NCBI GenBank assembly: GCA_902475825.1
Contig: CABSBA010000010.1
Span: 1-18,181, forward strand
From: an uncultured Collinsella sp.
Lineage (GTDB): Bacteria; Actinomycetota; Coriobacteriia; Coriobacteriales; Coriobacteriaceae
Reading direction: 5' to 3'
Length of the DNA stretch: 18,181 bases
Shown piece after piece: positions 17,323 to 18,105 of this stretch; position 1 is the stretch's first letter; every line of letters starts with the position of its first letter. The position numbers and the translations under genes were made by a program. The notes beneath the pieces are model-generated. The model was not told the origin of the DNA. It did not search any database and saw only the letters and a list, made by a program, of their open reading frames with translations.

Positions 17323-17338
17323 TCATTCAATGCTCGGG

Positions 17339-17411
17339 TGGAGACGAGGGGGATCGAACCCCTGACCTCTTGACTGCCAGTCAAGCGCTCTCCCAGCTGA
17401 GCTACGCCCCC
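17339..17411 (-). tRNA. tRNA-Ala, anticodon GGC
   Basis: A full cloverleaf of 73 bases on the minus strand. The anticodon stem CTTGA/TCAAG encloses loop CTGGCAG, anticodon GGC, reading GCC. The acceptor stem is GGGGGCG/CGTCTCC and carries the G3-U70 wobble that identifies alanine tRNAs. The T arm is AGGGG-TTCGATC-CCCCT. CCA is not encoded: the sequence after the acceptor reads ACCC. It has its own promoter and terminator on either side. Confidence 0.97.
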
Positions 17412-17646: not shown

Positions 17647-17802
17647 TCAAAACCATGCCGGTTTACTACGATGAATCAGGAATGTTCGACCACACACGTC
17701 TTTTCGCGTAACCGGCGGGCTCCTTACCTGCGGTTTTACAACTGGAGAACACACAGTGGTCGAACATTCCTGATTCATCGTAGTAAACCGGCATGGTTTT
17801 GA
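17647..17802. repeat. Perfect 47-bp inverted repeat element of unknown type
   Basis: The left arm 17647-17693 and right arm 17756-17802 are exact reverse complements over all 47 bases, with a 62-base centre (17694-17755). The arms end as TCAAAACC... outside and ...TTCGACCAC inside, and pairing stops abruptly on both sides. The centre itself folds (17708-17739). The whole is a 156-base, nearly palindromic object located between divergent tRNA genes. No target-site duplication is visible at the outer edges and no transposase is in the window. Possible readings are a MITE- or REP-like repeat, an RNA that folds into one long hairpin, a cruciform, or an invertible segment. I cannot match it to a known family. 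Confidence 0.95.
17708..17739. repeat. Hairpin inside the centre of the inverted repeat
   Basis: An imperfect stem of about 11 pairs. GCGGG (17716-17720, one G-T wobble) pairs with CCTGC (17728-17732 region) around the 7-base loop CTCCTTA. It then extends outward through AACC/GGTT and finally GT/AC, with one single-base and one two-base bulge. Together with the 47-bp arms it gives a two-level stem in RNA or single-stranded DNA. Confidence 0.5.
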
Positions 17803-18029
17803 AATGGCATCAGGTTGATTTCACGCATTAATATGTTGGAGCCCTGAAATATAGGCTTTAACTTTTTCTAAAACACGTCTTTTCCGCGACGCGCCTAGAT
17901 TAGCTGTTGTTTAGCATCGGATTTGATCTTGCGTTGTGCGACTTGCTCGTGCATGGTAGTATTTCACGACGTGAAGCGAAGAAATTAGGCCTGAGTTGCC
18001 TTTGTTAGAATTGCATTCACCGTTCATAA
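17803..18029 (+). promoter_or_regulatory. AT-rich stretch with candidate promoters for the CAT-anticodon tRNA
   Basis: This stretch is clearly richer in A and T than its surroundings and has no supported gene. Two extended -10 candidates read rightward toward the tRNA. One is TGTTAGAAT at 18003-18011, which would start about 12 bases before the tRNA but has no good -35. The other is TGGTAGTAT at 17954-17962 with TTGTGC (17934-17939) 17 bases upstream. A 13-base palindrome TTCACGACGTGAA (17963-17975) lies right at the expected start of the second one and looks like an operator. Neither promoter is certain. Confidence 0.35.
17873..17888. repeat. Second copy of a motif from the inverted-repeat centre
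   Basis: ACACGTCTTTTCCGCG here matches ACACGTCTTTTCGCG at 17694-17708 except for one inserted C, in the same orientation. The first 12 bases are identical. The other copy is the left edge of the inverted-repeat centre. It may be a remnant of a related element or a shared protein- or RNA-binding motif; chance is possible. Confidence 0.4.
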
Positions 18030-18105
18030 GGGCTCTTGGCGCAACGGTTAGCGCAGGGGACTCATAATCCCTGGGTTCTGGGTTCGAATCCCGGAGGGCC
18101 CACCA
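18030..18105 (+). tRNA. tRNA with CAT anticodon, probably tRNA-Ile2 (lysidine type)
   Basis: A complete 76-base cloverleaf with encoded CCA (18103-18105). The anticodon stem GGGGA/TCCCT closes loop CTCATAA, anticodon CAT. It is not initiator tRNA, because pair 1-72 is G-C and the anticodon stem lacks three G-C pairs next to the loop. The 8-base D loop, the C4-G69 pair and the G27-U43 closing of the anticodon stem match isoleucine tRNA of the type whose C34 is changed to lysidine by TilS to read AUA. Elongator tRNA-Met remains possible. Confidence 0.93.

What the first reader, a model, noticed from the sequence alone, without database searches (positions are those of the whole stretch)
17647..17802. 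Perfect 47-bp inverted repeat around a self-folding 62-base centre, between divergent tRNA genes
Two arms of 47 bases are exact reverse complements, far beyond chance in an intergenic region of about 620 bases, and pairing ends sharply at both sides. Perfect identity implies recent origin, copy correction, or selection for a hairpin. The centre carries a second hairpin (17708-17739). No gene in the window explains it and it is too long for a usual terminator. Possibilities are a non-autonomous mobile element (MITE or REP-like) spread by a transposase elsewhere, a structured small RNA, or a recombination site pair allowing inversion of the centre.
Basis: partly seen in the sequence, partly recalled or inferred. 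Interest (0 to 1): 0.75.

Follow-up and report, generated by a model that had tools for sequence, protein, structure and literature searches.

The report
Collinsella hairpin repeat with self-copied arm
The perfect inverted repeat is one copy of a family of hairpin-forming DNA repeats scattered between genes of the gut bacterium Collinsella, and its two arms match exactly most likely because one arm was recently overwritten with a copy of the other.

Summary
In detail: arms 17647-17693 and 17756-17802 are perfect 47-bp reverse complements around 62 bases; elsewhere in the window the longest such repeat within 400 bases is 12 bp. The window is Collinsella-like. The element belongs to a dispersed intergenic family: at least 13-17 places in each of three genomes, at least five arm types around one core, sometimes in arrays with ~97-nt linkers, seldom between divergent genes. 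The core looks like a bidirectional terminator in many copies, but not in this one.
The perfection is recent. Six orthologous copies between the same tRNA genes pair only 34-36 of 47 arm positions; the window has replaced about 19-24 inner bases of one arm by the complement of the other. That fits quasipalindrome correction by template switching. Four relatives show changes on both arms that keep pairing, but one-sided pair-restoring changes are not in excess across the family.
Inversion of the centre and RNA-level selection are not supported. A mobile origin is plausible, but I found no autonomous parent, no matching transposase and no recent jump. My paper searches showed no description. Verdict: a real, lineage-specific variant of the REP/REPIN kind with a clear case of arm-to-arm copying.

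The parts
17647..17802 (-). whole element, a type-1 (T1) member; family orientation is the minus strand
   Evidence: covariance model R1: 142.4 bits on minus, 83.4 on plus; nhmmer family alignment
17756..17802 (-). arm A (5' arm in family orientation), tRNA-Met side; the arm that changed
17759..17777 (-). inferred overwritten tract of arm A (the nine differences from ortholog L027 span arm positions 26-44); five positions within 17765-17771 differ from all six orthologs and each now pairs with arm B
17647..17693 (-). arm B (3' arm in family orientation), tRNA-Ala side; inferred donor of the tract; one change private to the window at 17650
   Evidence: 1-5 differences from the six orthologs
17694..17755 (-). 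62-nt centre
   Evidence: five positions private to the window
17708..17739 (.). inner hairpin of the centre
   Evidence: fold
17723..17738 (-). family core motif (family consensus TAAAACCGCAGGTAGA; here TAAAACCGCAGGTAAG)
   Evidence: invariant or nearly invariant columns in alignments A1 and A2
17756..17762 (-). conserved box CGACCAC, pairs with GTGGTCG
17687..17693 (-). conserved box GTGGTCG
17803..17809 (-). one-sided outer extension (TGCCATT) shared with T1/T2 copies at other loci
   Evidence: alignment
17337..17411 (-). tRNA-Ala(GGC), neighbour
18030..18105 (+). tRNA-Met(CAT), neighbour

Best explanation
The feature is one member of a Collinsella family of intergenic hairpin repeats of about 120-155 bp: type-specific inverted arms around a shared asymmetric core, which in many copies resembles a bidirectional intrinsic terminator. 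It works like a REP/REPIN-type element: a dispersed palindrome tolerated or useful downstream of genes. This copy became a perfect 47-bp palindrome when, during replication, the nascent strand paired with itself in the hairpin and copied about 19-24 bases of arm B into arm A (quasipalindrome correction by template switch), then returned to the normal template. Shown: family membership, orthologs with the uncorrected arm, and the direction of copying. Inferred: the template-switch mechanism, terminator activity of the cores, and an ancestral mobile origin with an unknown mobiliser.
For: Six orthologous loci carry the element at the same place and length but pair 34-36 of 47 arm positions; window 47 of 47. 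Of 9-13 arm-A differences per ortholog, 7-12 window bases equal the complement of that ortholog's own arm B, while arm B differs at only 1-5 positions. The tRNA-Met-side flank of the two closest is 98% identical. Family: 22 of 43 genus genomes hit by sequence, 46 of 65 of the taxonomic family by model R1; 17, 17 and 13 places in G002, G003 and G025 after I merged both-strand hits. At least five arm types with one core. In 145 sequences of 17 ortholog clusters, 7 of 7 double changes at paired positions kept the pair (0.5 doubles expected), in four sequences; changes at unpaired arm positions ended paired in 58 of 96 cases, 37.8 expected, the window left out. Context of 48 copies: 29 co-directional, 15 convergent, 3 divergent, 1 unclassed (Fisher p 0.0035). 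Terminator-like core: + strand 75, - strand 83, both 53 of 178; 3.9, 13.6 and 0.25 expected.
Against: My first count of pair-restoring changes, with a wrong pairing register, showed no excess (39 of 125, 38.2 expected). After I corrected the register the excess appeared, but it leans on a few sequences (without L263, L202 and L188: 33 of 59, p 0.011) and largely reflects double changes counted from both sides: strictly one-sided changes at unpaired pairs restored pairing in only 16 of 41, three of the 16 from the window itself, about what chance gives. L202 and L263 differ in the core too, so they may be replaced copies. The window's own core is not terminator-like on either strand. No recent transposition: paralogs in one genome are at most 84% identical apart from one tandem pair. 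No mobiliser found. The window's own genome is not held, so its copy number and reads are untested.
Confidence: 0.75

Rival explanations
1. Non-autonomous mobile element (REPIN or MITE) still spread by a transposase in trans, the arms being its recognition ends.
For: Dispersed copies of near-fixed length, arms more alike than interiors in many within-genome pairs. Site polymorphism at one locus: of 43 genomes, T2 alone in G003, T2+T3 in 7, another hairpin in 11, none in G012, contig ends in 2, and 21 too diverged to judge. IS200-like genes in 37 of 43 genomes.
Against: Of 85 IS200-like hits I examined 20 loci: none has a family arm or core beside the gene; one copy lies about 3 kb away (L156), another about 2.3 kb away in G022 (coordinates), and one 11-base arm match is at chance level. 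Nine of the 20 genes have other terminal repeats. No pair of facing T4 or T5 arms at gene-sized spacing in four genomes, though several arms were listed singly. No near-identical copies at separate loci. No clean target duplication.
Confidence: 0.4
2. A structured RNA (cis element or small RNA) whose stem is kept by selection on base pairing.
For: Outer-helix pairs covary (9 of 18 predicted pairs with changes on both sides; 7 of 7 double changes paired). Paired arm positions change at 0.44 of the odds of flanks. Conserved core on one strand; the small core stem has 33 G-U cells on the + strand in 175.
Against: No strand bias in the arms: 277 G-U against 334 A-C mismatches, + strand more stable in 52 of 100 copies. 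Among 29 co-directional copies 17 point with and 12 against the genes (my reading). Little covariation in the core helices (score reached by 38 of 500 shuffles; one pair with changes on both sides against 2.4 in shuffles). No Rfam match at gathering score besides tRNAs.
Confidence: 0.2
3. The perfect arm arose by ectopic gene conversion from another family copy or strain, not by copying within the hairpin.
For: T1 and T2 arms differ between genomes at the same site, so whole-copy or whole-arm replacement happens.
Against: The exact 21-nt tract was found, among all loci fetched, only as arm B of the orthologous G001 copy; other copies have different inner arms.
Confidence: 0.1
4. Invertible DNA segment: arms are recombination sites that flip the centre.
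For: Arms are inverted repeats of a size used by invertible promoters (recalled); element orientation differs between species at the adhesin and tRNA loci.
Against: Centre in the same orientation in all seven copies at the window's locus. An inversion would move the old arm-A interior into arm B, which did not happen. The species-level orientation differences come with a different arm type.
Confidence: 0.03
5. Assembly or polishing artefact in arm A.
For: Source reads unavailable; palindromes are hard to assemble.
Against: The sequence returns to the normal centre in the normal orientation after the tract, which a fold-back join would not do; flanks and arm B agree with six other genomes.
Confidence: 0.05

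Closest known systems
REPINs / BIMEs with RAYT transposases (REPIN paper PMC3116915, passages read; BIME recalled)
   Same: Small intergenic inverted doublets forming hairpins, conserved arms, several arm types per genome, some ordered clusters
   Different: About 120-155 bp with a conserved asymmetric core; arms are not a REP with a GTAG foot; no RAYT-like gene directly beside them in 20 loci examined
GTAG/CGTC-tagged REPs and TIRtrons (PMC3733652: abstract and outline, section 16, passages)
   Same: Located mainly between co-directional or convergent genes; some Collinsella IS200-like genes carry long terminal repeats like TIRtrons; CGTC repeats likewise lack a dedicated transposase
   Different: The terminal repeats of the Collinsella genes examined are unrelated to the arms of this family; the main text names no Collinsella
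Quasipalindrome-associated template-switch mutation (PMC7202029, part 1 of 4 of the text; PMC8794818, abstract and outline)
   Same: An imperfect inverted repeat becomes perfect by copying one arm; multi-base changes that restore pairing
   Different: Seen here as a natural, roughly 20-base event in a dispersed bacterial repeat
Intrinsic (bidirectional) terminators (recalled)
   Same: Core stem between A-run and T-run in many copies
   Different: Embedded in long variable arms; the window copy is not terminator-like

Membership tests
REP / REPIN | dispersed extragenic palindrome, inverted doublets | tested here: met
REP / REPIN | GTAG or CGTC tag at the foot of the hairpin | tested here: not met
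   read by eye in the sequences: GTAG strings occur inside T1, T3 and T4 arms at differing places, none in T2 or T5; no constant foot tag
REP / REPIN | cognate RAYT gene flanked by the repeat | tested here: not met
   20 loci examined of 85 IS200-like hits; none directly flanked by arms or core; two have a copy 2.3-3 kb away
MITE | terminal inverted repeats shared with an autonomous element | tested here: not met
   no facing arm pair with a gene of its own in 3-4 genomes searched by pattern; the one such pair is a copy split by a Mutator-family insertion
MITE | target-site duplication at an empty/filled site pair | tested here: inconclusive
   site polymorphism seen but the alternative sites hold another hairpin or are too diverged to define ends
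quasipalindrome correction | ancestral imperfect repeat made perfect by copying one arm | tested here: met
quasipalindrome correction | event caused by replication template switch | not testable with these tools
   needs mutation-rate experiments
intrinsic terminator | G+C-rich stem followed by T-run | tested here: not met
   family 105 of 178 positive on at least one strand, but the window copy negative on both strands
structured RNA | strand-specific pairing (G-U tolerated on the transcribed strand) | tested here: not met
   arms
structured RNA | transcription | not testable with these tools
   no expression data
invertible promoter | centre found in both orientations at one site | tested here: not met
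   seven of seven copies at this locus in one orientation

The most novel reading that the evidence does not exclude
These are self-correcting palindromes: the arms of each copy are kept complementary mainly by intramolecular template switching rather than by selection, so arm sequences drift and swap in blocks in concert while a fixed bidirectional-terminator core stays in the middle. The window catches the one-sided step, and L188 the completed two-sided step. This would make compensatory change, usually read as proof of RNA function, a mutational by-product. I lowered the probability from 0.3 to 0.22 on checking, because one-sided pair-restoring changes show no family-wide excess (16 of 41).
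Probability: 0.22. Interest if true: 0.7.

Novelty: new variant of a known kind. Interest (0 to 1): 0.47.

Why it matters
It adds a hairpin-repeat family to a common gut genus; I saw no description of it in the searches made (open-access papers only, and of the 88 papers only 15 were listed). It also gives a natural test case for an open question: whether long stems stay paired because selection needs the pairing or because DNA replication copies one arm onto the other. Reporter constructs and strain series could answer that directly. If the cores do terminate transcription, the family would be a dispersed source of bidirectional terminators.

Tried and rejected
Small coding gene: T1 copies hold an open frame from an ATG inside the left arm, but the rho-argS orthologs carry an in-frame stop and type-4 copies have no such frame (read by eye), so coding was dropped. 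Autonomous parent: the long-spaced arm pair in G002 is a family copy interrupted by a Mutator-family transposase gene (PF00872) with an 8-bp duplication read by eye; my first scan of that place used a wrong-frame ORF and found nothing. RAYT mobiliser. Plasmid or phage carriage: no match in either collection with the window's copy as query. Rfam relatives: none at gathering score besides tRNAs; sub-threshold hits have E-values of 2.3 to 7.2. Empty site at the window's own locus: the flank search found the six orthologs plus eight short matches of 26-49 bases. My first pair-restoration count used a wrong register and was replaced. The match counts count a palindrome up to twice, once per strand, so I use the merged counts, which are lower bounds because arm patterns find further T4/T5 places. 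The context test treats orthologs in three genomes and two elements in one gap as independent and rests on simple gene calls, so its p value is optimistic. One paper that names Collinsella and REP together (PMC7771070, passages) concerns prediction of insertion sites and describes no such family in the passages seen.

Full report
What is there. The two arms are exactly as described: 17647-17693 and 17756-17802, 47 bases, no mismatch, 62 bases between. Random first-order windows reach 14 bases at most in 100 trials, counting arms within 400 bases. The element lies between tRNA-Ala (minus strand) and tRNA-Met (plus strand). The window's own genome is not held. A 34-base piece of one arm found one contig of a Collinsella metagenome assembly, 94.9% identical to the window over 5.9 kb, so I treat the window as Collinsella-like.

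The family. A sequence search hit 22 of 43 genomes of the genus. An alignment of copies from different loci and iterated profile searches gave a family with near-fixed length and conserved arms. Covariance model R1, built from 48 copies, matched 46 of 65 genomes of the taxonomic family. Of the 43 genus genomes 25 had 12 to 43 matches and 18 had 0 to 3; these counts can score a palindrome once per strand. In three genomes with near-complete main contigs (G002, G003, G025) I merged both-strand hits, 17 and 13 distinct places, one of the G002 places being a fragment; T4 and T5 arm patterns find further places. A core model R2 matched 33 of 297 genomes sampled from the order, so the family is narrow.

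Anatomy. Copies have inverted arms, from about 60% to over 90% complementary over the outer 58 bases, and at least five arm types, here called T1 to T5; types 4 and 5 are shorter. They share a core: a box CGA(C/G)CAY, then TAAAACCGCAGGTAGA with a small stem closed by CYTGC, then RTGGTCG. The outer helix changes on both sides in 9 of 18 predicted pairs. The core helices show little covariation (score reached by 38 of 500 shuffles, one pair changed on both sides against 2.4 in shuffles). Some copies form arrays of two or three with gaps of about 97 bases (coordinates; sequence); the linkers carry a second repeated motif that occurs 24, 12 and 10 times in the three genomes at up to three mismatches.

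Context. Of 48 copies, 29 lie between co-directional genes, 15 between convergent genes, 3 between divergent genes and 1 could not be classed. Among the 29, 17 point with and 12 against the genes (my reading of the rows). Divergent gaps are under-represented against other gaps of at least 150 bp in the fetched loci (Fisher p 0.0035), with the caveat that orthologs are not independent and genes were called by a simple rule. A terminator-like hairpin is present in the core on the plus strand in 75, on the minus strand in 83 and on both strands in 53 of 178 copies; Markov versions gave 3.9, 13.6 and 0.25. The window copy is negative on both strands.

Why the window's arms are perfect. Six genomes carry the element at the same place between the same tRNA genes, without indels in the element. 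Their arms pair 34 to 36 of 47 positions; the window pairs 47. The window differs from each ortholog by 9-13 bases in arm A but 1-5 in arm B, and 7-12 of the arm-A differences equal the complement of the ortholog's own arm B. Five positions in arm A differ from all six orthologs and all five now pair. The centre differs from the orthologs by 8-13 bases and has five private changes in 62, against 4 in 398 flank positions; this may be a footprint of the same event, or faster change of the centre. Among all loci fetched by then, the exact 21-base tract occurs elsewhere only as arm B of the orthologous copy in G001. The simplest account is that arm B was copied into arm A within the hairpin. Template switching at quasipalindromes does this in E. 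coli (PMC7202029, part 1 of 4 read), and it has been proposed to create and maintain RNA stems (PMC8794818, abstract and outline read).

Is it general? I grouped 178 distinct copies by their flanks; 17 groups of at least four held 145 sequences. In a first count with a symmetric pairing register there was no excess of pair-restoring change (39 of 125, 38.2 expected). The register was off for some copies, the window included. With the best register per copy, 58 of 96 changes at unpaired arm positions ended paired, 37.8 expected (p 3.7e-5); without the three richest sequences 33 of 59 (p 0.011). But a change on both arms counts twice there. Counted by pairs, strictly one-sided changes at unpaired pairs restored pairing in 16 of 41 (three of the 16 in the window), which is no more than chance, while seven double changes at paired positions, in four sequences, all kept the pair, 0.5 doubles expected. 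Paired arm positions change at 0.0139 per site against 0.0311 in flanks; unpaired ones at 0.0438 and the centre at 0.0239. L188 is the cleanest case: GAAACC became GGATGC on both arms at once in an otherwise very similar copy. L202 changed the inner arm from a T3-like to a T1-like sequence on both sides, but it and L263 also differ in the core, so replacement of the whole copy is possible. So arms do change together, but that template switching is the general cause is not shown; selection on pairing would give double changes too. Against RNA-level selection stand the absence of strand bias and the mixed orientation.

Mobility. At one locus, of 43 genomes searched, G003 has a T2 copy, seven have T2 plus T3, eleven have an unrelated hairpin, G012 has none, in two the contig ends there, and 21 are too diverged to judge. 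That is turnover of hairpins at one site, but not a clean empty site. Within a genome, copies at separate loci are at most 84% identical, apart from one tandem pair at 99%, while orthologs reach 99% (44 copies of three genomes), so I see no recent jump. IS200-like genes occur in 37 of 43 genomes. I examined 20 of the 85 hits: none carries this family's arms or core directly beside the gene. One copy lies about 3 kb away, another about 2.3 kb away in G022, outside the stretch I had fetched, and one 11-base arm match is at chance level. Nine of the 20 genes have other terminal inverted repeats, like the TIRtrons of PMC3733652 (section 16 read). The one facing arm pair that encloses a gene is a copy split by a Mutator-family transposase gene with an 8-bp duplication. 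REPs are known targets of insertion sequences (PMC1525189, abstract).

Conclusion. The finding is real and is explained at two levels: an old, lineage-specific, REP-like hairpin family, and a recent arm-to-arm copy in this member. What mobilised the family, whether the cores terminate transcription, and whether template switching or selection keeps the arms paired remain open and testable.

Noticed in passing
L085 5925-14396 (G002), L091, L095, L032: A giant surface-protein gene (FctA and VWA domains in G002; long ORFs at the same place in G003 and G025) is flanked by these hairpins; G008 has an array of three without the gene, and element types and orientations differ between species, as if the hairpins were rearrangement points.
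   Followed up: partly
L089 6089-7756 (G002): A family copy is interrupted by a Mutator-family (PF00872) transposase gene with an 8-bp target duplication.
   Followed up: yes
L139, L140, L142, L143, L145, L147, L150, L155, L156: IS200-like transposase genes of Collinsella carry their own terminal inverted repeats of 23-53 bases, several with GGGGACAG or GGGACGGGG motifs, TIRtron-like and unrelated to this family.
   Followed up: partly
L216-L226: At the site where other genomes hold this family, eleven genomes hold a different hairpin (TTGCGGTGGAATAGTTC arms).
   Followed up: no
G002, G003, G025 genome-wide: A second repeated motif AAATGATCCGTTTTCCTCCGTCCCC, possibly a shared terminator sequence on its minus strand: 24, 12 and 10 places at up to three mismatches.
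   Followed up: no
L161, L096 versus window 18030-18105 and L087: tRNA-Met between the two tRNA-Ala genes is in the opposite orientation in G003 and G025 compared with G002 and the window's relatives.
   Followed up: no
window 17694-17705 and 17873-17884: A 12-base direct repeat ACACGTCTTTTC, one copy in the centre and one in the flank.
   Followed up: no
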